Source of the DNA: Armatimonadota bacterium | GTDB taxonomy: Bacteria; Armatimonadota; Fimbriimonadia; Fimbriimonadales; Fimbriimonadaceae | Assembly: GCA_016125185.1 (NCBI GenBank) | Contig: WGMG01000006.1 | Span: 806,001-870,000, forward strand | Reading direction: 5' to 3' | Length of the DNA stretch: 64,000 nucleotides | Part shown: positions 178-46,184 of the stretch, in pieces | Position numbering within the stretch: the first letter of the stretch is position 1 | Layout: each line of letters begins with the position of its first letter | The notes under the pieces: model-generated | The model's database searches: none | Told to the model about the DNA's origin: nothing | What the model saw: only the letters and a program-made list of their open reading frames with translations | Made by a program: the position numbers and the translations under genes

Positions 178-870
178 TCAGCATTCATCGGGGCGGAGTC
201 GGTATCCGACTCCTGTCTCGGTTTGGATCAGGCGATGTTGGCCCGGTCCCGAGTCGATTTTTTGCCGCAGGTTGGCCATATGGACGCGAAGAGTATGGGT
301 CGAGTCTTCGAATGCAGGACCCCACACTTCGGTCAGGAGTTGCTTTTGGGTCACGACCTTACCGGCGTGTTGACAAAGAATCGACAGCAGTTTGTATTCG
401 ATCTGGGTCAGTCGAATCTCTTCGCCCGCAAGGGCGACGACGCGGGCGGCAAAGTCGACGCGAAGATCGCCGGCCTCGAAGACGGCGACATCGGGGGCGG
501 GTTTGGAATGTCGCAAGGCCACTCGCACACGCGCCATCAATTCACCGACTGAAAAGGGTTTCGTCAAGTAGTCGTCGGCACCCTGGTCGAGGGCTCCCAC
601 CTTGTCGTTCTCCTTCCCCCGAGCCGAAAGGACGATGATCGGTACAGTCGACCATTCGCGGATGCGGCGCAAGACCTCCAGGCCGTCGATATCCGGCAGG
701 CCGAGGTCCAGGAGAACGATTTCTGGATTCTTTTGCGCGACTAGTCGGATTCCCTCTTCGCCGGTGGCGGCCTCGTACCAGGTCGCCTCGTCGTCGCCCA
801 AGCTGGCGCGCAGGAACCGACGGATTGGCACCTCGTCTTCGATGACGACGAACCGGATCGGGTTATTCAC
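178..870 (-). CDS. kdpE: KdpE, potassium-response DNA-binding regulator
   Basis: OmpR-family response regulator of 230 residues, close to the usual 225. The receiver domain is residues 1-120, with the acidic pair E11/D12, phospho-acceptor D55 in LLDLGLP and the conserved K in LTKPF. The winged-helix DNA-binding domain occupies about 130-228 and ends RLRPDEC. I place the start at GTG 870, preceded by GGAGGG, so that it overlaps the kdpD stop by eight bases (GTGAATAA); the longer frame to 900 would run into kdpD. It is the last gene of the kdp operon and, by family knowledge, activates kdpFABC when phosphorylated by KdpD. Confidence 0.93.
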   Translation of the reverse strand: MNNPIRFVVIEDEVPIRRFLRASLGDDEATWYEAATGEEGIRLVAQKNPEIVLLDLGLPDIDGLEVLRRIREWSTVPIIVLSARGKENDKVGALDQGADDYLTKPFSVGELMARVRVALRHSKPAPDVAVFEAGDLRVDFAARVVALAGEEIRLTQIEYKLLSILCQHAGKVVTQKQLLTEVWGPAFEDSTHTLRVHMANLRQKIDSGPGQHRLIQTETGVGYRLRPDEC

Positions 871-3517
871 GGCCCTCCGATTTAGTGGGGGCAGGTTCAA
901 GAGGGAACTCGATGCGGAAATCGGCCCCGACCTTCGTGGGGACGATGGATATTCGGCCCTGATGGGCTTCGACCGCGGCTTTGCAAATCGCTAGCCCGAG
1001 GCCAAAGCCAGCCGAGGATCGCCCTCTGTACCGTTCGAAAACCTGCGCGCCAACTTCCTTAGGGATGCCTGGCCCATCGTCGATGACGTCGAGTTGGGCC
1101 GACCATCCGGCCTGACGAATCGTGACTTGAACGTGAGCGTCTCGTCCGGCGTGGCGGCTTGCGTTTTCGAGCAGGTTGACGATCACCTGCTCAAAAAGCA
1201 CGCCATCGGCTCGCACAAGCAATTGCCCACCCTCCACCTCGACCGAGACGGGATGGTCGAACAGGGATTCAGTGCGAAGAATGGCGGCGTTCACGATCTC
1301 TTCCAGATTATGCCAGTCGTAGTTGAGATCGATGGAGCCTCGAATCCTCGTCATGTCGAGAAGGTTTTGAACCAACCGGCTCATTCGCTCCGATTCTTCG
1401 ACGATCACCGATGCCAAGTCTTGCTGTTTGGCCGTCGCTTCGGCATTCGACTTTAAGATCGACGCCGCGCCAAGAATGGATGCCAGCGGAGTGCGCAGGT
1501 CGTGAGAGACCGAGCTGAGAAGGTCTCCGCGCAGTCGCTCCGTCTCGGCCTTCAGGGCGGCAACATGAGAGGCCTTGGCGAAGAACGCGCGCTCCAGCGC
1601 GGTCGAAAGCAGGCTTCCTACCGCTTCGATTAGGTGGCGACTCGACGTGTCGAGTTCGCGGTCGCTAAGTTGGACGGCGAATGCTCCGAAAGTCTCCTCC
1701 GATCCAGCGAGGGGAAGGTAGAAGCCTTCGGCACCGGAGAGCGTATCGGTCGATGCTCCGGCCGGCTTGCCGTGATCCACAACCCATCGTGCCACCGCCT
1801 GCTCCTTTTCCGTACTCTCAAACCCGTTTTCGGACGCAACCAAGGGCCCGAAGAGGCCCGCGCTTGAAATTCGTAAAACGGCAGAGTCGGCCCCAACGAG
1901 GGAGCGAATTTTGTCGATGGCGAGTTGCGCCATTTCGGTTTTGCTTCGCGTGCCCGCCAGCTTTTTGCTGAGATCGTACAGTGCGGCGGTGTTACGTTCG
2001 CGATCGGACGCCGCCCGCGAATGCTCCTTCAGACGCGATGTGAGCGAGCTAATCATCAGCGCCACCGCCAGCATGACGGCAAAAGTCAGAACATTCTGAA
2101 CGTCGCTGACCGCGAACGTGTGAATGGGCGGAACGAAGAAGAAGTTGAAGCAGGTTACGGCGAGAACGGCGCTCAGCATGGCCTCCCGGCGCGTGTGGCG
2201 AACCGAAACAATCGACGTTCCCAGCAGGTACAGCATGATGATGTTCGCGTGGCGAACTTCGTTGCCGATAAAGTGACCAATAACGGTTGCCAATGCGACG
2301 AGCAGGATGGTTTCGGCGATACCTTTGATGCTCCATGCACCTTCTCGTTGAGATCGTCGCAAGGGCGTGCCCGATGCTTCATCGCCGGTGATGATCAGAA
2401 CGTCGATATTGCCACTGCTCCGCACCGTATGGTCCACCACCGACCCGAAAACAATCTCCTTCCATCGCTGGCGAACCGGCTTGCCCATGACGATGGTCGT
2501 GACGTTCTCTTGTTGGGCGTAGGCGATGAGTTCGGAAACGATGTCGTCGCCGGCGAGGGTCGTGGTTTTGGCGCCTAGCTCCTCGGCTAGGCGCATGGCG
2601 GCATCCATTTCGGCTTGGGCTTGGGTGCCGATGCCTGCCTGTCTAGAGGAGGCGACGGTGACGGCTAAGAGATCGGCGTGGAGGCTGTTGGCGAGCCGCC
2701 GCGCGGCCCGGACGACTTTCGACGCCATTCGGCTGGGGGCGACACAAACGAGGATGCGCTCGCTAGCGTGCCACGGCTCGGTCGTTTTGGTGAGCGATCT
2801 AGTTTTGCGGAGTTCCTGATCGACCCGCTCGGCGGTTTGACGCAGGGCGAGTTCTCGAAGCGCGAGAAGATTTCCTTTCTTAAAGAAGCCCTGCAGAGCC
2901 TGCTCGATCTTCTCGGGCACATAGATTTTGCCGTCCTGTAGGCGTTGTTGGAGTTGCTCGGGCGGAATGTCGATCAGCTCGATCTCGTCAGCGCGTTCGA
3001 TGAATGAGTCTGGAACGGTTTCCTGGACGAAGATGCCGGTGACCTGGGCGACGACGTCGCGCAGACTCTCGATGTGCTGGATATTGACGGTGGTCCAAAC
3101 GCCAATTCCGGCATCCAGAAGCTCTTCGATGTCCTGAAAACGTTTGGCATGGCGCGATTCGGGCGCGTTGGTGTGGGCCAATTCGTCCACCAACACAATC
3201 TCTGGCTTGCGGGTTAGGGCCGAGTCAATATCGAACTCTTTGATCTCGATTCCACGATGCTCAATGACGCGCGGGGGCAGTGACTCAAGGTTCTGGGCGA
3301 GCGCTTCGGTCTCTTTGCGGCCGTGCATCTCCAGATAGCCGATAACGATCTCTTGCCCCCTCTCACGAGCCTCTTGGGCATTGGACAGCATGCTATAGGT
3401 TTTGCCTACGCCAGCGGCCATACCGAGGAAGATTTTGAGGCGTCCCTTGGCTCGCTGAACCTTGTGTTCGGCGACGATATCGAGCAATTCGTCGGCGTCA
3501 GGGCGAATGTCAGACAT
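863..3517 (-). CDS. kdpD: KdpD, potassium/turgor sensor histidine kinase
   Basis: 884 residues, near the E. coli length of 894. N-terminal KdpD domain with Walker A (AAGVGKT near residue 36-42) and the LVDELAHTNAPES motif; a universal-stress-protein-like domain about 250-370; four closely packed membrane segments about 395-500; a GAF-like region; then the kinase core with H672 in SHDLRTPL, N box NLLENASRHA, and G boxes DDGPGIP and GFGLGLAICK. All catalytic motifs look intact. It starts 45 bases after the kdpC stop and overlaps kdpE. By family knowledge it senses low potassium or ionic stress and phosphorylates KdpE. ATG 3517 is the only good start. Confidence 0.95.
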   Translation of the reverse strand: MSDIRPDADELLDIVAEHKVQRAKGRLKIFLGMAAGVGKTYSMLSNAQEARERGQEIVIGYLEMHGRKETEALAQNLESLPPRVIEHRGIEIKEFDIDSALTRKPEIVLVDELAHTNAPESRHAKRFQDIEELLDAGIGVWTTVNIQHIESLRDVVAQVTGIFVQETVPDSFIERADEIELIDIPPEQLQQRLQDGKIYVPEKIEQALQGFFKKGNLLALRELALRQTAERVDQELRKTRSLTKTTEPWHASERILVCVAPSRMASKVVRAARRLANSLHADLLAVTVASSRQAGIGTQAQAEMDAAMRLAEELGAKTTTLAGDDIVSELIAYAQQENVTTIVMGKPVRQRWKEIVFGSVVDHTVRSSGNIDVLIITGDEASGTPLRRSQREGAWSIKGIAETILLVALATVIGHFIGNEVRHANIIMLYLLGTSIVSVRHTRREAMLSAVLAVTCFNFFFVPPIHTFAVSDVQNVLTFAVMLAVALMISSLTSRLKEHSRAASDRERNTAALYDLSKKLAGTRSKTEMAQLAIDKIRSLVGADSAVLRISSAGLFGPLVASENGFESTEKEQAVARWVVDHGKPAGASTDTLSGAEGFYLPLAGSEETFGAFAVQLSDRELDTSSRHLIEAVGSLLSTALERAFFAKASHVAALKAETERLRGDLLSSVSHDLRTPLASILGAASILKSNAEATAKQQDLASVIVEESERMSRLVQNLLDMTRIRGSIDLNYDWHNLEEIVNAAILRTESLFDHPVSVEVEGGQLLVRADGVLFEQVIVNLLENASRHAGRDAHVQVTIRQAGWSAQLDVIDDGPGIPKEVGAQVFERYRGRSSAGFGLGLAICKAAVEAHQGRISIVPTKVGADFRIEFPLEPAPTKSEGRE

Positions 3518-22854: not shown

Positions 22855-23928
22855 CTACATCCGCTGGTCGATCGCGACGACGAGAATGTCGACGGTCTTG
22901 AGCTGTTTCGCGATTTCGAGCATCAGTGAGCCCTTCAGGAACTCCTGAATCTTGGTTCGCTCGCTATGACCAAGGATGATCTGCGAGACGTTGTTCTCTT
23001 GGACGTACTTGATGATGGCGTCGGCTGGTTCGCCTTGCAAGATTTCGGTCGGAATGCCGAGCCGCTCGCACAGTTTGAAATCGTCTTCGAGGATTTTCTT
23101 TGAGGTCTCCGGCAGTTTTGGCTCTTCGACGTAGACGGCACGGACTTCGCCCTGCATTTTGCGGCCGATCCGCCAGCCGCGGCGAATAACGCGCAGGGAC
23201 GACTGGGTGGGAGAAATGCAGATGAGAATCTTGTCGCTGGTTTGCCACGGTCGCGCAATGCGCTGTTGTCGCCGCCAGGCGATCAAATCTTCGTCCACCC
23301 GGCGAGCAACCTCGCGCATGGCCATTTCGCGGAGGGCATTGAGAACGGCTTCGCTGAAGTATCCCAATAGGGCCTTGTCGATCTGCTCAGTTGGCACGAT
23401 TTCGCCGCGCTTGACCCGATTGCGTAGAGCCTGCGGCGTGAGGTCCACCAATTCGACTTCGTCGGCTTGGTGGAACATGCGATCGGGAACAACGTCCTTG
23501 ACTTCCTTCCCGGTGATTTCAAAAATGTCATCGTTGAGGCTCTCCAGGCTCTCAACGTTCATGGTGGCGATGACGTTGATGCCGCTGTGGAGAATCTCTT
23601 CGGCGTCCTGCCAGCGATAGGCGTGGGCCGAGCCGGGCACGTTTGCGTGACCAAGGTTGTCGATCAGGACCGTGTTCGGATGCCGCTGAAGAATCGCTGG
23701 AATATTGATTTCGCTTCGCGTCTTGCCACCGTATTCGAACGAGAGTGGCTGAACGTAATCCAAGCCGGAATTAAGGTCCGCATTGACGATTAAACGGTCT
23801 TCTTCGGAGAGGATGGCGACGATACAGTCCTCACCTCGCGCCTTCCGGCGTCTGGCCTCTTCGACCATGACCTTGGCTTTGCCAACGCCAGGCGCGTAAC
23901 CAAGGAAAATCTTAAGTTTGCCGGGCAT
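22855..23928 (-). CDS. Stand-alone KdpD N-terminal/USP protein
   Basis: 357 residues matching only the first ~370 residues of KdpD: the KdpD domain (KIFLGYAPGVGK, VLIDNLGHANVPGSAHAYRW, INVIATMNVESLESLND) and a universal-stress-protein domain (DKILICISPTQSSLRVIRRG... IILGHSERTKIQEFLKGS). It has no membrane helices, GAF or kinase core. The P-loop ends GK17-A18 instead of GKT and the Walker B pair DE is DN, so ATP hydrolysis is doubtful. Truncated KdpDs are known in cyanobacteria. It starts three bases after a response-regulator stop and is 15 kb from the true kdp operon. Confidence 0.85.
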   Translation of the reverse strand: MPGKLKIFLGYAPGVGKAKVMVEEARRRKARGEDCIVAILSEEDRLIVNADLNSGLDYVQPLSFEYGGKTRSEINIPAILQRHPNTVLIDNLGHANVPGSAHAYRWQDAEEILHSGINVIATMNVESLESLNDDIFEITGKEVKDVVPDRMFHQADEVELVDLTPQALRNRVKRGEIVPTEQIDKALLGYFSEAVLNALREMAMREVARRVDEDLIAWRRQQRIARPWQTSDKILICISPTQSSLRVIRRGWRIGRKMQGEVRAVYVEEPKLPETSKKILEDDFKLCERLGIPTEILQGEPADAIIKYVQENNVSQIILGHSERTKIQEFLKGSLMLEIAKQLKTVDILVVAIDQRM

Positions 23929-23931
23929 GCC

Positions 23932-24681
23932 TTACTGCGCGACCGCCACGCTGACCATCGAGTCGATCCATTTCTGGATGTCCTTCGTCAAGTTGTCGAT
24001 CACGATCTTGGAGGTTCGCGGAACCCCGCCACTAGTCTTCAATTCATTAGCCACGGTTTCCTCACAGATCGCCTCGAAGAAGCGCCCGCCACAGGGCACG
24101 TCCTCGCTGTCGATGTAGGCACGAATCAATTCTTGAATGTAGGCGGGCATGACCACGGTGAGGGTCTTCATACCGCCGGGGGTGGAGACTTCGAACTTGC
24201 AGGTGAGGTCGCCAAACTGCTCATCAACCTCTTTCTCCTTGAGCTCGAAGGAGGTCCCGTTCACACTTTGACGGCTGAATTCCCGGCACACAGTGGTAAC
24301 CGGTGAAAGCTTGCGGTCGCGCTCCAAGGCGGATCGGACAGCATTGCGCAGGGCGTCGGGAGTGAAAGGCTTGCGCAGAAAGTCGGTTGCGCCCTTATTG
24401 ATGGCTTCCAGGGCGGTTTCGATGCCGCCGTAGCCGGAAACGATCAGGACCTTGGCCGAAGGATCTCGGCGCAGAATCTCAGCCTCTAACTCGATGCCGG
24501 TCATTTCAGGCATCTTGTAATCGGTGATGACTAGGTCGTAGTTGGCGCCGTTGCCGTAAATACCGAGAGCTTCGCGGGGATTATCCGCGGTTTCGACGGA
24601 ATAGCCTGCGTTTGCAAGCACCAATTCCATCATTTTCAGAATACAGGCTTCGTCGTCAACGACGAGAATCTTGGAGCTCAA
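23932..24681 (-). CDS. Response regulator with unrecognised output domain
   Basis: 249 residues from TTG 24681, which has GGAGG five bases upstream. The receiver domain (1-122) has the acidic pocket VVDDEA, phospho-acceptor in LVITDYKMPEMTG, the T/S in LIVSGYGG and K in LRKPF. The remaining ~125 residues (LTCKFEVSTPGGMKTLTVVMP..., KIVIDNLTKDIQKWIDSM) match no helix-turn-helix, GGDEF or HD domain that I know. It sits between a histidine-kinase-like gene and the KdpD-like gene, so all three probably act together. Confidence 0.8.
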   Translation of the reverse strand: MSSKILVVDDEACILKMMELVLANAGYSVETADNPREALGIYGNGANYDLVITDYKMPEMTGIELEAEILRRDPSAKVLIVSGYGGIETALEAINKGATDFLRKPFTPDALRNAVRSALERDRKLSPVTTVCREFSRQSVNGTSFELKEKEVDEQFGDLTCKFEVSTPGGMKTLTVVMPAYIQELIRAYIDSEDVPCGGRFFEAICEETVANELKTSGGVPRTSKIVIDNLTKDIQKWIDSMVSVAVAQ

Positions 24682-24859
24682 CTATCCTCCGTGCGGTACC
24701 CATACATTTTGGTTGCTGCCAAGTTTATTTACGCCAGACAGACCCCAAAGGTGATGGCCTCCAAAGGGTTATTATGGTCCAACGCGTCCCGGATATAGAT
24801 AGGGATACACCGATAAATTACCCCCGGTGGGAAATTTGACCGACATCGGAGACCTGGCA

Positions 24860-26071
24860 TTATTGCGGGGTAAAGGTCATCACCAGGTTCAAATTTCCAT
24901 TCTCGCTCGTGACGACGGTCTTCTTGGTGTGCCGACGTAAAACTGCGCGCACAAAGTCCATTTCGTCGTAGTGCTTAGCGTCGATTCCGGCTTTTTTGGC
25001 CAAAACCGAGCTGTACGCGTCAGCTATTTCGGGCCGCAATTCGACGCCTCGGGAGGAGAGCGTCACGACCCAGTCTTGGTCGATCTTTTCGTAGTTCAGA
25101 TCGAAGGTGGTGACATCTTGTTTTCGGCTGAGTTCCGACATCCAGTTGATGAGCGCCAAGCCTAAGTCGTCGGGCCAACCTTTGAGTTGGATCATGGAGC
25201 CGGGAAAGCTGGCGATGGTCGAGTCGCCATCGCCGATTAGTCTTGCGAAGGCGACTACGTCTTTCAGTTCGCTTGCCAGGTCAATGTCGAGTTCGACCAG
25301 AGAGCGCTTATTGCCCGTTATGTACTCCTGCGTGTGGGGCCGGTGAAGCGAGGCCACCGTCATCCGGGCAACTGCCTTGCTCAATTCCTCAAGCTCCTCT
25401 TTGCCCTTGAGCTCTTTTTGAAAGCGTCCTGCTATCGCCATCGCAGTCGGCATTGCCAGTGAGTGCTGAAGCAGGCTGTGGAAGGAATCTTCTTTGTCCA
25501 TGCCAAAGAGGTCTCTGAATAAGATGGGAATGAAGAGGATGCAGATACATCCAAAGACGAGGAACAGAATCCGAAACATTTTTCGGATTTGGGCCTGACT
25601 GTCGATGTTTTCATCGAGCGACGATTCTGCTTTGTCGAGTACCTGTTTCAGACCCGTGTCAGTTGGAACAACCTGACCCACCAAGATGCCGCGAGCCATA
25701 GTCGCATCACCTTTTTCGAGCGCACTCGAATACGCAACGATGGCTTGGTGGAGAGGGTCGAGGAAGACCAAGATTCGAGCTTTCTCGTTCAGCGTTTTGA
25801 TCTTGGGGATTGCATCAGTGATCATAGCGTCGGCGTCGGCCAAGCGGGGCAGGGGAGTCGAGGGGAAAGTCTTGGCGATGTTTGCCGCTTCTGAGATCTG
25901 TTTCGAGGCGGCGGACAATTTGCCGAATAGAATTCCCAATTTCGTCGCTTCGCTCTTTTCTTGAGGCTGAAGGGCAGTCATGATCCCATACAAAATGAGA
26001 AAAATTACGAAGCAGCCGATGGCGGCAAATCGCAAAGTCCTGGCATTGAGGAAGGCTTGAACGTATTTCAT
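24860..26071 (-). CDS. Histidine-kinase-like membrane protein with decayed CA domain
   Basis: 403 residues. A membrane helix (14-33), a helical extracytoplasmic sensor (35-165) and a second helix (166-184) lead to a cytoplasmic part that aligns by eye with a histidine kinase: H203-SLAM-P208 has the HxxxxP spacing of an H box, and the C-terminus TVVTSENGNLNLVMTFTP mirrors the end of HATPase domains. The N box lacks its asparagine (DDLGLALINWMSEL) and the DxGxG box is replaced by SSRGVELRP. ATP binding therefore looks lost or altered. The response regulator gene starts 178 bases downstream. Confidence 0.55.
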   Translation of the reverse strand: MKYVQAFLNARTLRFAAIGCFVIFLILYGIMTALQPQEKSEATKLGILFGKLSAASKQISEAANIAKTFPSTPLPRLADADAMITDAIPKIKTLNEKARILVFLDPLHQAIVAYSSALEKGDATMARGILVGQVVPTDTGLKQVLDKAESSLDENIDSQAQIRKMFRILFLVFGCICILFIPILFRDLFGMDKEDSFHSLLQHSLAMPTAMAIAGRFQKELKGKEELEELSKAVARMTVASLHRPHTQEYITGNKRSLVELDIDLASELKDVVAFARLIGDGDSTIASFPGSMIQLKGWPDDLGLALINWMSELSRKQDVTTFDLNYEKIDQDWVVTLSSRGVELRPEIADAYSSVLAKKAGIDAKHYDEMDFVRAVLRRHTKKTVVTSENGNLNLVMTFTPQ

Positions 26072-26141: not shown

Positions 26142-26810
26142 GTGAAAGTGATTCGAATTCTCGTCCTGTGCTCCACATCTGCGTTGGCGTTGTGTGGGCT
26201 CGCCATGGTTTACATGGCGTCAGTCAGGGGAACGTATGTCCCAGGGGTCAACCTCATTCAGACCCGGCATGCGGTCACCCCCGAAATGGCTGAGCAGGTC
26301 AAGAAGCTGGATCGCAAGATCGGCAAGTTCTTTCAACTGCCCGATACTTCGGGCAAGCCGGTCGCCATCGGCGGCCAAGGGCCGAAGCCGCAGTTCATCT
26401 ACTTCGTGAAGAAGGGATGCCCATGTAGCTACGATGCCGAACCGATTTTCCACAAACTGTACGACCAGTTTGCGGGCAAAATCGACTTCATTTCGGTGAC
26501 CGATGCCGACATGGCCTCGGCTAAGCAGTGGGCGAAGGACCTTGAGGTTCCGTATCCGGTGGTGGCCGACCCGAAGATCGATGTAATGGAAGCCTACGAG
26601 GCTCCGGCGGCGACGTACATCTCTCTGCTCGACCAGAACGGCCTCATCGTGAAGCGATGGGCCGGGTATTCGCAGGACTACCTGAAGGAAATGAATGAGG
26701 ACATGTCGAAGCTGATCGGCGAGCCCGCTCGACCGTTCGACGCGCAGTATGCCCCCAAGATCAAGACAACGGGCTGTGCGTTCGATAACTACCAGGAAAC
26801 CAAGCAGTAA
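26142..26810 (+). CDS. Membrane-anchored redoxin (thioredoxin-fold)
   Basis: 222 residues from GTG 26142. An N-terminal anchor or signal helix (ILVLCSTSALALCGLAMVYM) is followed by a peroxiredoxin/TlpA-type fold: LDRKIGKFFQLPDTSGKPV, active-site region FVKKGCPCSYDAEP (C93, C95, a CxC rather than CxxC), and the cis-Pro-region equivalents PYPVVADP and AATYISLLDQNG. An additional Cys near the end (TTGCAF) could be resolving. A TACACT box lies nine bases before the start. Extracytoplasmic thiol redox is likely; the substrate is unknown. It converges with tRNA-Arg. Confidence 0.65.
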   Translation: MKVIRILVLCSTSALALCGLAMVYMASVRGTYVPGVNLIQTRHAVTPEMAEQVKKLDRKIGKFFQLPDTSGKPVAIGGQGPKPQFIYFVKKGCPCSYDAEPIFHKLYDQFAGKIDFISVTDADMASAKQWAKDLEVPYPVVADPKIDVMEAYEAPAATYISLLDQNGLIVKRWAGYSQDYLKEMNEDMSKLIGEPARPFDAQYAPKIKTTGCAFDNYQETKQ

Positions 26811-27042: not shown

Positions 27043-27348
27043 ATGCAAACGTTACTGAATCCAATTTTGGGGCTTGACAGCGAGTTTCCGGACAGCGTTT
27101 ACGTGCTCCATCATGTTTCGAGCAAGCGCTACGGATGCTATTGCCACCAAAACGTTCATGGCTTGGCATGCTTTAGCACGGAAAGCGGAGCGGCTAAGTT
27201 CGGCCAGTTTATCGACCTGGACGGCCTAAAGATCGTCGAACTCACTTTCGACGAAGCGCGCGAAGTCGCAAAGGATCGACCGATGCCGGTTACGGCGGTC
27301 ATGTTGCTCGACAATATGAGCGATCCTAAGATTCACTACATCCGCTAA
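27043..27348 (+). CDS. Small alpha/beta protein of unknown function
   Basis: 101 residues with a strong ribosome-binding site (AAGGGGAATACGG before ATG). The composition is soluble and cytoplasmic: SVYVLHHVSSKRYGCYCHQ, LACFSTESGAAKFGQFI, LKIVELTFDEAREVAKDR, VTAVMLLDN. The pattern of a strand, an 'S/T-E-S-G-A' helix cap and a second strand recalls SseB or DUF3110-type folds, but I cannot assign it. Two cysteines (YGCYCH) could bind a metal. It has its own terminator and so is likely monocistronic. Confidence 0.65.
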   Translation: MQTLLNPILGLDSEFPDSVYVLHHVSSKRYGCYCHQNVHGLACFSTESGAAKFGQFIDLDGLKIVELTFDEAREVAKDRPMPVTAVMLLDNMSDPKIHYIR

Positions 27349-40080: not shown

Positions 40081-42597
40081 ATGGATGACTTTGATTTCGG
40101 AATGGAACCTGCCGAACTGAGTACGTCCGCAATGAATTTCAGCTTTGGCGCGGCGGGCAAGATTTCCAGTTTATGGGTTGCCGAATCCGGCGGAGCCTAC
40201 GGCGGCGATCAACAATTCATTTCCGGTCCAATCGTTATTGGAGACGAAACTTCGGACGAATACGTTCCAGGGACGATTCTGCTTGGGACCCGGACGGATA
40301 TCGAGGATCCATGGATCGTGAGCCGCAATACCGGCGGCGATCCCCAGGTGAGCGAGACGCAGGTCGATATCGACTACGACTTTTCGCTCCTCAGCGACCT
40401 GACGGTGAAAGGGAAGTTCTATGAGGACACCGAGCGGCCGGGAGTGGTCATTTGGGAGATCACGATTCGGAATAAGAGTCGGCAGAGCGTCGAAATTGGC
40501 GAACTTGGGTTTCCTCTGGCGCTGAATACGTCGCTGGAGGGCTTTCCGATCTCGGATGAGGGGATGAACTCGCTGTTGACCGAGCGGCTGATCGTGCAGA
40601 AGCATATCGGCGGGGCAGGAAGCTATTTGGTGGCGAAGAAGGTGTGTGGCGATCCGCCCGGGCTTCTGGTTTTTCCGGGGAAGGACACGTCGTTTGAGTT
40701 TTTCCATTCGGCGCCGCTTTCGATGCGGTTGTCGCCGGGTTGGTCGGGGATTCCGATCTTGTACGTACACTCGCAGGCAACGATCGAGCGGGAGGACTGG
40801 GGGGAGTGGTTCTTCGACCATACATCGCTCGTGATGGAGCCGAAGGAAGAGAAGACGTTTCAAATCTGCTTTGCGCCGGTTCTGGCGCGGCATGGCTACG
40901 ATGTGCCGCTGGCCTTGGCGGAGTACGGTGTGCCGACATTTCGTCCGATTCCGGGTGCGGTCGTGCCGACCGACGTCACGTTGGCGGTCGAGGTTTCGGG
41001 CACGCGTCCGGCTGAATTTCTCTCCGACGACGAAGCGGCGGAGCTGGATTCTGAAAGCGACGAGTTTGGTGGCACAGTGCTGGTGCGGAGCCCAAACACC
41101 GGCCAGAACCGGATTGTGGTGAAGGACATGGACGGGCGGGAGGCGTGGGCGCATATCTACGTCGTCAAACCGATCAAGGACTTGATTGAGTCGCGGGCGT
41201 CGTGGATTTGTCGCAACCAGGTGATGAAGGACGGACCGTTTGAGCACGCGATCGTGCCGGCGGATTTATCCGAAGAGACGAAGGCAGTTGCCGAGTTCGA
41301 CAACAGTTGGGCGATCATTTCCAGCTTGGCGGACGCAACGTTTTTGGCAGAGAAGAATCGAATTTACTTCGACCCCGACCAGGTGAAGGTCCTGGATGAC
41401 TACATCGAGAAGTTTCTGCTTCAACGGTTCCACAAGCCGGGGCAGGGGACTTTTGGGGCGATCTGCCCACCCTGGAAGGATTCGATCGCGATGGATGGGA
41501 GCCGGGCCCAGCTTTATGTGTTGGCGGCGAAGTTCTATGTGTCGTGCGCGGACTTGGCGACGGGGGCTAGGCTGTCGCGGGTGGCGAACGACTATCTGGA
41601 GTTGGCGCGTGAGCTTTTGGTTGGGATGCTGAAGTTTGCCGACCGGGAAGGGTACGTGGCGCAGACGCTTTATGGGGCGAACGAATTGTTTCGGTTCGAC
41701 GAATGGGCGGATTTGCGCGAAGGCTTCTTGGAGAAGACGCGGCTCCCGTTCTGGAACGGACGGTATTTCTCGCTGACGACTCTGAGCGAGGTGAGCGTGA
41801 TGGCGGAGCTGACGAATTCCATGAGCGCGACCGGCTCGGTCGAGCAGTTGTGTCTGGCCCACAAATCGTCATCGCCTAACTGGTGGTCGTTTGGGGCAGA
41901 GCCGCGGCCGAGCGTGGATTACGAGGCGCATCCGTACCTGCCGGACTACGCCGAAGTGTTCCCCTCGTACACGAGCGTGAGTTCGTCGATGGCGATGACG
42001 ACGTGGCTGAAGCGCGACTATACGCGGCTGGACGAAGCAGGTTTGCGGTTGGCGACTGGCGGAATGCTGGCTCCCTGGAGTTTGGTCCGGGAGGATGGAG
42101 CGTTGACGATGGGCTTTTGCCCGGATTTGGGATCGTCGCAAAGGGGCATCGTCAACTTTACGGGCGACGCTGGCTTTGCGCTGGCGGACTACCTTCGGTA
42201 CTCGACGGGCTACTTGCTGTCGAGTTTCGACCGAGGTTTTGTGCCGCTTGGCGTGCATTTCGAGTCTTATCCGCGCGATGGGATGACGATCATCCGCTTG
42301 GAGCCGTGGGACGGCGTGGGTCGGCGAATCATGGTGCGGCACCTGAACCTTTCGGTCGAGGTCGAAGGTGCGAAGATCGACGTGATTGAGTTTGATGTGA
42401 ACCTGCGATGGGCAAAGGTGACGCTGGACAACCCGACGGAGACGATGAAGCGGAAGACGCGCGTGCTGGTGGACGGGCTGTGGGGGACGAAGTTCGTGGT
42501 AACGGATGCGGATAGTAAGGTCGAGGACGGGGTTTTGGTTTTGGATACGGTGGTGGATGCGGGTCGGCTGAAGGAGATCGAGATTCGGGTGGTTTGA
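40081..42597 (+). CDS. Large protein of unknown function, possibly glycosidase-like
   Basis: 838 residues, cytoplasmic (no signal). Residues 1-300 are beta-sandwich-like (FSFGAAGKISSLWV, VIWEITIRNKSRQSVEIGELGFPL), about 330-370 form another small sandwich, and 370-700 are helical with Trp/Tyr/Asp-rich loops (YGANELFRFDEWADLREGF, FPSYTSVSSSMAMTTWLKRDY). The C-terminal part is again beta. The order sandwich, helical toroid, sandwich resembles six-hairpin glycosidases and DUF5695 proteins, but no catalytic signature is recognisable. The last 39 codons are duplicated 249 bases downstream. Confidence 0.7.
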   Translation: MDDFDFGMEPAELSTSAMNFSFGAAGKISSLWVAESGGAYGGDQQFISGPIVIGDETSDEYVPGTILLGTRTDIEDPWIVSRNTGGDPQVSETQVDIDYDFSLLSDLTVKGKFYEDTERPGVVIWEITIRNKSRQSVEIGELGFPLALNTSLEGFPISDEGMNSLLTERLIVQKHIGGAGSYLVAKKVCGDPPGLLVFPGKDTSFEFFHSAPLSMRLSPGWSGIPILYVHSQATIEREDWGEWFFDHTSLVMEPKEEKTFQICFAPVLARHGYDVPLALAEYGVPTFRPIPGAVVPTDVTLAVEVSGTRPAEFLSDDEAAELDSESDEFGGTVLVRSPNTGQNRIVVKDMDGREAWAHIYVVKPIKDLIESRASWICRNQVMKDGPFEHAIVPADLSEETKAVAEFDNSWAIISSLADATFLAEKNRIYFDPDQVKVLDDYIEKFLLQRFHKPGQGTFGAICPPWKDSIAMDGSRAQLYVLAAKFYVSCADLATGARLSRVANDYLELARELLVGMLKFADREGYVAQTLYGANELFRFDEWADLREGFLEKTRLPFWNGRYFSLTTLSEVSVMAELTNSMSATGSVEQLCLAHKSSSPNWWSFGAEPRPSVDYEAHPYLPDYAEVFPSYTSVSSSMAMTTWLKRDYTRLDEAGLRLATGGMLAPWSLVREDGALTMGFCPDLGSSQRGIVNFTGDAGFALADYLRYSTGYLLSSFDRGFVPLGVHFESYPRDGMTIIRLEPWDGVGRRIMVRHLNLSVEVEGAKIDVIEFDVNLRWAKVTLDNPTETMKRKTRVLVDGLWGTKFVVTDADSKVEDGVLVLDTVVDAGRLKEIEIRVV

Positions 42598-42613
42598 GGC
42601 TTGTCCTCGCTTC
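42481..42613 (+). repeat. Direct repeat copy A (3' end of the large gene)
   Basis: 133 bases covering the last ~39 codons and 16 bases beyond the stop. It is nearly identical (three differences) to 42730-42862 at a constant offset of 249 bases. Confidence 0.95.
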
Positions 42614-42729
42614 CCTTGCTCGACTCACCCGGTTCGCCAACACAGCGTTGTGAAAATTGGTTATTGGTGTTGGCTCACCGACCTCTCTATCCAAAGAGGT
42701 ATCTCGGTTTGGTAGCCGGAGTGAAATCT

Positions 42730-42862
42730 TGGGAGACGAAGTTCGTGGTAACGGATGCGGATAGTAAGGTCGAGGACGGGGTTTTGGTTTTGGATACGGT
42801 GGTGGATGCAGGTCGGCTGAAGGAGATTGAGATTCGGGTGGTTTGAGGCTTGTCCTCGCTTC
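42730..42862 (+). pseudogene. Duplicated 3' fragment of the large gene (repeat copy B)
   Basis: It repeats 42481-42613 with three substitutions and keeps the frame and stop, encoding the same tail (ends LKEIEIRVV). No start codon or body of the gene precedes it; the 116-base spacer is unrelated. It looks like a recent 249-bp-offset partial duplication and is probably not expressed as a protein. Confidence 0.85.
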
Positions 42863-42917
42863 GATCTGGTAGTCCCGGCGGACGAGCTTACTCTGGCTCT
42901 TTTTGAATCTGCTTCGA

Positions 42918-42969
42918 TTGGACCCCCATCCCAACCCTTCCCCCTTTTCGGGAAAAAGGGGAAGGGCTC
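42918..42969. repeat. Dispersed palindromic repeat, copy 1
   Basis: 52 bases from TTGGACCCCCATCCC to GGGGAAGGGCTC, forming a hairpin CCCTTCCCCCTTTTC / GAAAAAGGGGAAGGG. It recurs at 43342-43393 with two changes in the loop. Confidence 0.9.
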
Positions 42970-44513: not shown

Positions 44514-46184
44514 ATGAGTGAAACGGTTCTCGTTCTCGGCTCGGGACCGATTCGCATCGGCCAAGGCATCGAATTCGACTATTCCTGCGTTCATTGTGTT
44601 TGGTCTTTGCGAGACATGGGCTATCGAGCCATTCTCGTCAATAACAACCCCGAAACCGTTTCGACCGACTTCGATACGTCCAACGGACTGTACTTCGAGC
44701 CGGTGACCTTGGAGGACGTCATGGACGTCATCAGCCACGAAGAGCCCATGGGCGTGGTGTGCCAGTTCGGTGGCCAAACGGCGATCAACCTGGCGATGGG
44801 GCTACAGGAGCGAGGGATTCAGGTTCTGGGCACGACACCCGAGGCGATCGCCGAGGCCGAGGACCGCGAGCAATTCGACGCTTTGTTGGAGAAGCTGGGG
44901 TTTCAGCGGCCGAAGGGAAGAGCCGTTCGCTCTCTGGAGGACGCGGTGAAGGTTGCCGAAGAGGTCGGTTATCCGGTTCTCGTTCGCCCAAGTTTCGTTC
45001 TCGGAGGCCGGGCGATGGAGATCGTTTTCAACGAAGAGCATCTGCGGGCGTTCTACGGAGAGGCAGAATCCGCCAACCCCGGGCAGCCGGTGCTGGTCGA
45101 CAAATATCTGCTGGGCAAGGAAGCGGAAGTCGACCTGATTTCGGACGGCGAAAACGTTTTGATACCTGGGATCATGGAGCATATCGAGCGGGCCGGCGTG
45201 CATAGCGGCGACTCGATGGCGATCTATCCTCCGGTAGCGCTGACGAGCGACGAAATTACATCGATGTGCCGAATGGGCATCGAGATTGGCCGGGCTTTGA
45301 AGGCTAAGGGGCTGGTCAATATTCAGTTTGTGATTGTGGATGGGGTGGCGTACATCCTTGAGGTGAACCCGCGGGCGAGTCGCACGGTACCGTTCTTGAG
45401 CAAGGTGACGGGCATTCCGATGGTCGATCTGGCGACGCGGTGCATGATGGGTGAGAAGCTCGCTGAGCTAGGCTACGAGACCGGGCTTTGGACTTTGGAG
45501 ACGACGGCCGGGACAGAGTACTCGGGTCCGAAAGGCACGAAGTACGCGCCGATCTATAAAGGGCGGATTTTGGACGTTTCGAACCAGGATGCGCCGGTAG
45601 GGAAGTCGCAGGTTTATGCGGTGAAGGCTCCGGTGTTCTCGTTCCTCAAACTGCGGTTGGTCGAGCCTTCGCTTGGGCCGGAGATGAAGTCGACGGGCGA
45701 AATTATGGGGGTCGATTCGACCTACGAGGCGGCTTTATATAAGGCGTTTTTGGCGGCGGGAATTGGTTTTAAGGGAGATGGCGCGGTGTGCATCACGGTT
45801 CGCGACCAGGACAAGGAGCAGGCGGTGGACATCGGTCGGCGGCTGAATGCGAACGGACTGAAGCTGGTGGCGACGCCGGGAACGGCGGCACACCTGCAGG
45901 CGCAGGGCATTGCTTGCGAGAAGGTGAACAAGATTCAAGCGGGTTCGCCGAACTTGCTAGACCTGATCATGGAAGGCGGGTTAAGTATGATGATCAATAC
46001 GGCCAGCCTGACGGAAACGAGCGAGAGCGAAGCGGCGCGGATTCGGCGTGCGTGTATCGAGACGGGTGTCCCTTGTGTGACGGCGATCGACACGGCGAGC
46101 GCGTTGGTTCGGGCTTTGGAGATTTATTCGGATCCGTCGCAGAGCGAGTGCAAGCGGCTAGACGAGTACTTCCAGTTGGCGTAG
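44514..46184 (+). CDS. carB: Carbamoyl-phosphate synthase large subunit, C-terminal half (split carB)
   Basis: 556 residues that correspond only to the second half of the ~1070-residue CarB. It opens with the preATP-grasp sequence VLVLGSGPIRIGQGIEFDYS, continues with an ATP-grasp domain (VLVRPSFVLGGRAMEIV, EAEVDLISDGENVLIPGIMEHIE, LEVNPRASRTVPF) and the allosteric MGS-like domain (GFKGDGAVCITVRDQDKEQ..., VNKIQAGSPNLLDLI). This half phosphorylates carbamate. Split carB genes are known in Methanocaldococcus and Aquifex. A ~35-residue insert (TAGTEYSGPKGTKYAPIYKG...) precedes VKAPVFSF. The partner half is outside the window. Confidence 0.92.
   Translation: MSETVLVLGSGPIRIGQGIEFDYSCVHCVWSLRDMGYRAILVNNNPETVSTDFDTSNGLYFEPVTLEDVMDVISHEEPMGVVCQFGGQTAINLAMGLQERGIQVLGTTPEAIAEAEDREQFDALLEKLGFQRPKGRAVRSLEDAVKVAEEVGYPVLVRPSFVLGGRAMEIVFNEEHLRAFYGEAESANPGQPVLVDKYLLGKEAEVDLISDGENVLIPGIMEHIERAGVHSGDSMAIYPPVALTSDEITSMCRMGIEIGRALKAKGLVNIQFVIVDGVAYILEVNPRASRTVPFLSKVTGIPMVDLATRCMMGEKLAELGYETGLWTLETTAGTEYSGPKGTKYAPIYKGRILDVSNQDAPVGKSQVYAVKAPVFSFLKLRLVEPSLGPEMKSTGEIMGVDSTYEAALYKAFLAAGIGFKGDGAVCITVRDQDKEQAVDIGRRLNANGLKLVATPGTAAHLQAQGIACEKVNKIQAGSPNLLDLIMEGGLSMMINTASLTETSESEAARIRRACIETGVPCVTAIDTASALVRALEIYSDPSQSECKRLDEYFQLA

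What the first reader, a model, noticed from the sequence alone, without database searches (positions are those of the whole stretch)
22855..26071. Dismantled Kdp-like signalling module: KdpD-N, orphan-output regulator and decayed kinase
Seen: three minus-strand genes in a row. One is KdpD cut after the USP domain, with GKA instead of GKT and DN instead of DE; one is a response regulator with a 125-residue output domain that I cannot place; one is a membrane sensor whose H box spacing (H203...P208) and C-terminal CA strand survive while the N box and DxGxG motif are gone. Inference: a split, possibly ATP-independent relay in which the soluble KdpD-N senses a ligand (c-di-AMP or ions via the USP domain) and modulates the regulator or the true KdpD 15 kb away.
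Basis: partly seen in the sequence, partly recalled or inferred. Interest (0 to 1): 0.72.

Follow-up and report, generated by a model that had tools for sequence, protein, structure and literature searches.

The report
Stripped-down potassium sensor module
In one branch of Fimbriimonas bacteria, a potassium-transport control module has lost its sensor kinase and its transporter and carries a KdpD fragment with a broken active site, yet the regulator and that fragment are still kept intact as a pair, so they probably do a new, kinase-free job.

Summary
A stand-alone KdpD-N/USP protein (22855-23928) has GKA for GKT and DN for D[E/D]. It follows an intact receiver with an unclassified 125-aa output domain (23932-24681), which follows a fast-evolving membrane protein (24860-26071).

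Relatives show what it came from. The output domain occurs in 53 of 291 genomes of the phylum (Armatimonadota; nearest named relative Fimbriimonas), usually as histidine kinase - regulator - KdpD-N, often next to KdpABC or the K+ transporter KimA. In the window's clade (8 genomes, one origin) the kinase is lost genome-wide, KimA is absent, KdpD-N has lost residues essential for serine kinase activity, and the receiver has lost conserved residues on its kinase-docking helix. Regulator and KdpD-N remain paired under strong purifying selection (dN/dS up to 0.10). The membrane protein is probably a decayed kinase (weak evidence).

So "dismantled" is supported. Control of the KdpD 15 kb away is not: five of the eight genomes lack full-length KdpD and KdpA yet keep the pair. 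Likeliest now (inferred): KdpD-N is a pseudokinase ligand sensor acting on the regulator without ATP chemistry. New variant of a known kind; I found no description of the regulator family.

The parts
22855..23928 (-). KdpD-N: stand-alone KdpD sensor domain plus USP domain, 357 aa; predicted dead atypical serine kinase
   Evidence: Pfam KdpD 1.5e-70 and Usp 3.4e-10; PDB 2r8r 3.5e-48; dN/dS 0.02-0.08 in clade
23875..23901 (-). altered Walker A, GYAPGVGKA (residues 10-18; T to A at 18)
   Evidence: A in 8/8 kinase-less relatives, T in 17/18 with kinase
23656..23661 (-). altered Walker B, D90-N91 instead of D-D/E
   Evidence: N in 8/8 kinase-less relatives, D or E in those with kinase; E to A at this place kills KdpD serine kinase activity in E. 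coli (PMC11018627)
23932..24681 (-). response regulator, receiver plus unclassified output domain, 249 aa, TTG start after GGAGGA
   Evidence: Response_reg 6e-28; D9, D10, D54, K104 invariant in 26 aligned relatives
23944..24270 (-). output domain (about residues 138-246): three-strand meander plus three helices
   Evidence: AlphaFold2 pLDDT 82, pTM 0.76; 53 of 291 genomes of the phylum; nearest solved fold 2gpi, DUF1488, Z 6.8
24682..24859 (-). intergenic stretch before the regulator with blocks shared by three species (CATAAT.ACC, TCTGGCGTA, CGGAGGAT): probable promoter/RBS region
   Evidence: three-way alignment
24860..26071 (-). membrane protein, 403 aa, in the place of the lost histidine kinase; probably its decayed remnant (H203, P208 kept)
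   Evidence: no family; 27% identity to the G019 protein at the same place; profile score vs the intact kinases 20.95 against shuffled mean 14.1, 2/100 as high
25463..25465 (-). H203, candidate remnant of the DHp phospho-acceptor histidine
   Evidence: conserved in both family members
27043..27348 (+). small 101-aa protein of unknown function, possible further member; relatives lie directly after KimA or KdpD-N in several intact modules
   Evidence: cluster cl4, 8 neighbourhoods; no Pfam match for a relative

Best explanation
This is the remnant of an Armatimonadota K+-transport control module. In its intact form a membrane histidine kinase (HAMP-PAS-HisKA-HATPase) phosphorylates a regulator with a special output domain, which controls a nearby KdpABC or KimA K+ importer, while KdpD-N acts as a serine kinase that shuts the importer at high K+ (shown for KdpB in other bacteria; inferred for KimA). 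In one Fimbriimonas clade the kinase and KimA were lost, KdpD-N lost residues needed for catalysis, and the receiver lost its conserved kinase-facing residues. The regulator and KdpD-N were kept together under strong selection. I infer that KdpD-N is now a pseudokinase ligand sensor (K+ status through c-di-AMP or another nucleotide at the USP domain) that binds the co-translated regulator and sets its activity without a dedicated kinase. The membrane protein is most likely a kinase-dead leftover of the old sensor.
For: Shown: kinase orthologues at E about 1e-265 to 1e-281 in the 3 kinase-bearing genomes tested, best genome-wide hit only 1e-63 to 1e-70 (a shared paralogue) in all 8 of the clade. 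KimA in 18/19 kinase-bearing genomes and 0/8 of the clade (the exception is 77% complete). GKA and DN in 8/8 of the clade. One origin, 100/100 support. dN/dS 0.02-0.10 for both retained genes. Regulator keeps D9, D10, D54, K104 but loses N13, R15 and H24 on helix alpha1, and Q55; alpha1 carries kinase-specificity residues (PMC2991266). Kdp- or KimA-linked intact modules across the phylum. KdpD-N serine kinase chemistry: PMC11018627.
Against: All losses map to one clade, so the correlation is one evolutionary event. No binding or activity was measured. The receiver's phospho-acceptor is intact, so another kinase may still drive it. The link of the membrane protein to the kinase is weak. Three genomes of the clade, including the window's, still have KdpABC and KdpD, so some cross-talk there is not excluded.
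Confidence: 0.58

Rival explanations
1. The regulator is still an ordinary phospho-regulator, now served by a non-cognate kinase elsewhere in the genome; KdpD-N only stabilises or titrates it.
For: Receiver catalytic residues intact in all relatives; the genome has at least a dozen strong histidine kinases.
Against: Kinase-facing residues on alpha1 (13, 15, 24) and the residue after D54 have shifted together in the clade; no orphan kinase is linked to the locus.
Confidence: 0.28
2. One reading: the soluble KdpD-N senses a ligand and modulates the true KdpD/KdpE 15 kb away.
For: KdpD, KdpE and KdpABC are in the window; short KdpD forms acting on KdpFABC are known (PMC11018627).
Against: Five of eight genomes of the clade lack full-length KdpD and KdpA but keep the pair; stand-alone KdpD-N tracks the special regulator, not KdpD, across the order.
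Confidence: 0.07
3. The pair is a relic on its way to loss, without function.
For: Kinase and transporter gone; membrane protein evolving very fast, dN about 0.9, and clearly present in only two genomes of the clade.
Against: Regulator and KdpD-N have dN/dS 0.02-0.10, open frames and unchanged order in 8/8 genomes, and conserved upstream blocks.
Confidence: 0.05
4. Sub-question: the membrane protein is not a decayed kinase but an unrelated inserted protein.
For: No Pfam or NCBIfam hit; profile comparison with the kinases only borderline; present in only two genomes.
Against: Same place and strand as the kinase, same two-TM layout, H-box H and P kept, and a permissive alignment with HisKA-HATPase is collinear from H box to last strand.
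Confidence: 0.35

Closest known systems
Short KdpD (KdpD/USP-only) atypical serine kinases, e.g. Deinococcus geothermalis DgKdpD (PMC11018627)
   Same: Same domain make-up (KdpD sensor domain plus USP), no histidine kinase domains; in many Armatimonadota also beside kdpBC with intact GKT and DE
   Different: Window protein lacks the Walker A Thr and the Walker B acidic residue; KimA and the cognate kinase are lost; sits behind a regulator with an unclassified output domain
Split Kdp two-component systems of Deinococcus radiodurans (PMC5716572) and Allomeiothermus silvanus (L164/L165)
   Same: KdpD-N separated from a distinct sensor kinase and regulator near kdpABC
   Different: The A. silvanus regulator has a LuxR-type HTH (GerE 2.6e-21) and no match to the Armatimonadota output domain; there the kinase is intact
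Canonical KdpD-KdpE of the window (178-3517)
   Same: Shares the KdpD sensor domain (35% identity) and the K+ context
   Different: Full kinase with GKT and DE; co-occurrence shows an independent system
Repurposed pseudo-histidine kinase DivL of Caulobacter (PMC4211667)
   Same: Works-like precedent only: a kinase-derived protein that binds and reads a regulator without kinase activity
   Different: DivL is a pseudo histidine kinase; here the retained pseudokinase is of the KdpD-N serine-kinase type
DUF1488 (PDB 2gpi)
   Same: Nearest solved fold to the output domain, Z 6.8, rmsd 3.6, 80 of 91 residues
   Different: Z under 8 can be a common arrangement; no sequence match

Membership tests
KdpD-N / KdpD non-kinase proteins | KdpD sensor domain followed by USP, no TM/GAF/DHp/CA | tested here: met
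   NF038185 7.4e-89, though 298.6 bits against a curated cut-off of 550
Atypical serine kinase of the KdpD type | Walker A G-K-T | tested here: not met
   GKA in the window and all 8 of the clade
Atypical serine kinase of the KdpD type | Walker B Asp plus acidic catalytic residue (D109/E110 in E. coli) | tested here: not met
   D90-N91; both acids essential in PMC11018627
c-di-AMP-binding KdpD-USP | motif (A/G/C)xSxSx2N...(Y/F) | tested here: inconclusive
   C, S, T (for S), S (for N), Y: three of five strict positions
KdpDE two-component system | Regulator of OmpR/KdpE type with winged-helix output | tested here: not met
   no DNA-binding Pfam domain reaches its cut-off in the window regulator
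KdpDE two-component system | Sensor with functional HisKA and HATPase domains | tested here: not met
   no HisKA/HATPase match in the 403-aa protein
Armatimonadota K+-linked kinase-regulator-KdpD-N module | Regulator output domain as in alignment A3 | tested here: met
   1.2e-50 for the window genome (the window is itself in A3), 27 of 113 genomes with the window sequence alone
Armatimonadota K+-linked kinase-regulator-KdpD-N module | Cognate histidine kinase present | tested here: not met
   absent genome-wide
Armatimonadota K+-linked kinase-regulator-KdpD-N module | Regulates the adjacent K+ transporter | not testable with these tools
   inferred from linkage only
DUF1488 | Same fold and family profile | tested here: inconclusive
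   Z 6.8, no Pfam match

The most novel reading that the evidence does not exclude
A KdpD-N pseudo-serine-kinase has replaced the histidine kinase as the direct input to a response regulator: ligand binding to its USP domain, not phosphorylation, switches a regulator whose output domain is of an undescribed type used across a phylum for K+ transport control.
Probability: 0.3. Interest if true: 0.78.

Novelty: new variant of a known kind. Interest (0 to 1): 0.56.

Why it matters
It gives a natural before-and-after experiment. The intact module (kinase, regulator, KdpD-N, with KdpABC or KimA) and the stripped one (regulator plus a catalytically dead KdpD-N) exist in species of one genus. Comparing them would show whether KdpD-N serine kinases also control KimA, and whether a two-component regulator can be rewired from a kinase to a ligand-binding pseudokinase. 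The regulator family, with its unclassified output domain linked to K+ importers across a phylum, is not described in any paper found here.

Tried and rejected
(1) Link to KdpD/KdpE: rejected on co-occurrence. (2) The kinase moved elsewhere in the genome: rejected. (3) A ydaO/c-di-AMP riboswitch near these genes: none in the window or in five relative loci; only a tRNA was found. (4) LrgB or other membrane-family reading of the 403-aa protein: Pfam hits only at E 0.03 and above. (5) RHH, DUF6672 and other Pfam hits for the output domain: weak, in one or two members only. (6) Foldseek on the output domain: nothing at E below 0.001; PX-domain and RNase H rows look like common arrangements. (7) Direct BLASTP of the membrane protein with an intact kinase: no meaningful match; a global profile alignment failed. 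(9) TrkH/KtrB as the transporter of the stripped genomes: none in 27 genomes. Kup: the five hits are weak, in kinase-bearing genomes only, and lie on their KimA-family genes. So the five genomes without KdpA, KimA, TrkH or Kup import K+ by a route not identified here. (10) The output domain could not be searched genome-wide in another phylum; it has no match on plasmids.

Full report
OBSERVATION. The three ORFs exist as described. The last is KdpD-N plus USP, with residue 18 Ala where KdpD has the Walker A Thr and residue 91 Asn where it has the Walker B acid. The middle one is a receiver with D9, D10, D54 and K104 in place, plus a C-terminal domain with no significant sequence match. The first has two hydrophobic stretches and no family match. 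Regulator and KdpD-N are separated by three bases, so they are probably co-translated.

WHAT RELATIVES SHOW. The window is contig C6 of a 4.5-Mb genome; its nearest named relative is a Fimbriimonas MAG. A search with the output domain found it in 27 of 113 genomes of the order, and every neighbourhood not cut by a contig end has a KdpD-N directly after it. Stand-alone KdpD-N of about 360-410 aa occurs in the order in those genomes; full-length KdpD of about 890 aa is distributed separately. In most relatives a histidine kinase of about 615 aa (HAMP, PAS, HisKA, HATPase) lies directly before the regulator, and in nine of them a transporter matching the solved K+ importer KimA (2e-127 to 6s3k) lies directly after KdpD-N. 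Outside the family the order kdpB-kdpC-kinase-regulator-KdpD-N is common (kdpB and kdpC in 12 of 24 loci), with KimA in 8 of 24, sometimes as kinase-regulator-KimA without a detected KdpD-N. Phylum-wide, 53 of 291 genomes have the output domain. The KdpD-N proteins of these other families whose motifs could be read keep GKT and DE.

THE STRIPPED CLADE. Eight genomes, the window's included, lack the kinase. The loss is genome-wide: the kinase-bearing genomes tested give 1e-265 or better, stripped ones only 1e-63 to 1e-70, which is the level of a paralogue they share. KimA is absent from all eight and present in 18 of 19 others. All eight have GKA and DN. Their KdpD-N form one group with 100/100 support on a long stem (0.62 changes per column), so this is one evolutionary event and the counts are not independent. 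Within the clade both retained genes are under strong purifying selection: dN/dS 0.016-0.079 for KdpD-N and 0.034-0.103 for the regulator in pairs where synonymous sites are not fully saturated (several dS values are above 1 and rough). The receivers have also changed: N13, R15 and H24 on helix alpha1, Q55 next to the phospho-acceptor, and T82 to S. Helix alpha1 holds residues that set kinase specificity (PMC2991266).

THE MEMBRANE PROTEIN. It is found clearly in only one relative, G019, at 27% identity, while the neighbouring genes are 78-82% identical; a third close species (G032) has nothing there. Both copies keep H203, S204 and P208. Its profile against the intact kinases scores 20.95 against a shuffled mean of 14.1 with SD 2.8, and 2 of 100 shuffles are as high; a permissive alignment runs collinear from H box to last strand. 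I take it as probably a decayed kinase, not proven.

MECHANISM. Shown elsewhere: KdpD's N-terminal domain is an atypical serine kinase that inhibits KdpFABC by phosphorylating KdpB. It needs the Walker A motif and both Walker B acids, and the short form is stimulated by c-di-AMP (PMC11018627). Inferred here: the intact Armatimonadota module couples transcriptional control by the kinase-regulator pair with post-translational shut-off by KdpD-N, of KdpB or, where KimA is the partner, of KimA. When KimA and the kinase were lost in the stripped clade, catalysis by KdpD-N was no longer under selection, but a binding role, most simply toward the regulator, was. All 27 genomes encode a diadenylate cyclase, so c-di-AMP remains a candidate ligand, though the USP motif from PMC8214093 is met at only three of five strict positions.

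WHY NOT KDPD. The window genome does have KdpABC, KdpD and KdpE, but G021, G022, G024, G026 and G031 keep the regulator/KdpD-N pair without KdpA or full-length KdpD.

OUTPUT DOMAIN. AlphaFold2 gives a confident small domain (pLDDT 82.5, pTM 0.76; three-strand meander, two helices, short strand, helix). The best solved neighbour is 2gpi, a DUF1488 protein (Z 6.8 over 80 residues, next 4.8). Foldseek finds nothing significant. Whether it binds DNA, protein or a ligand is unknown; its linkage to K+ importers suggests transcriptional control. A split Kdp system in Deinococcota (A. silvanus) uses an ordinary LuxR-type regulator instead.

VERDICT. The KdpD link is not supported. This is a new variant of a known kind, with an apparently undescribed regulator family as its most novel piece.

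Noticed in passing
window 27043-27348 (+); L048:10579-10920; L050:4011-4352; L049:10652-10993; L042:7582-7929; L043:5767-6108: A 101-115 aa protein without a Pfam match lies directly after KimA (or KdpD-N) in several intact modules and about 1 kb from the stripped module in the window; it may be a further module member.
   Followed up: partly
G021, G022, G024, G026, G031 (whole genomes): No KdpA, KimA, TrkH/KtrB or Kup detected; how these Fimbriimonas relatives import K+ is unexplained.
   Followed up: partly
L039:6048-8657: In G018 the histidine kinase and the regulator read as one 869-aa open frame across a stretch with an ambiguous codon (X); either a natural fusion or an assembly fault.
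   Followed up: no
window 44514-46184 (+): A 556-aa ORF that reads like the second half of carbamoyl-phosphate synthase large subunit (from memory), suggesting a split carB.
   Followed up: no
window about 42330-42930: Repeated proline/arginine-rich reading on the minus strand (PYPKPKPRPRPYYPHPLPRTSSP twice), probably an intergenic DNA repeat rather than a protein.
   Followed up: no
window 26142-26810 (+) and relatives (cluster cl2): A 222-aa redoxin-like gene sits near the module in 17 neighbourhoods, next to the regulator where the kinase is lost; probably conserved synteny only.
   Followed up: no
window 24682-24859: Blocks CATAAT.ACC, TCTGGCGTA and CGGAGGAT are conserved upstream of the regulator in three species; candidate promoter or operator.
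   Followed up: partly
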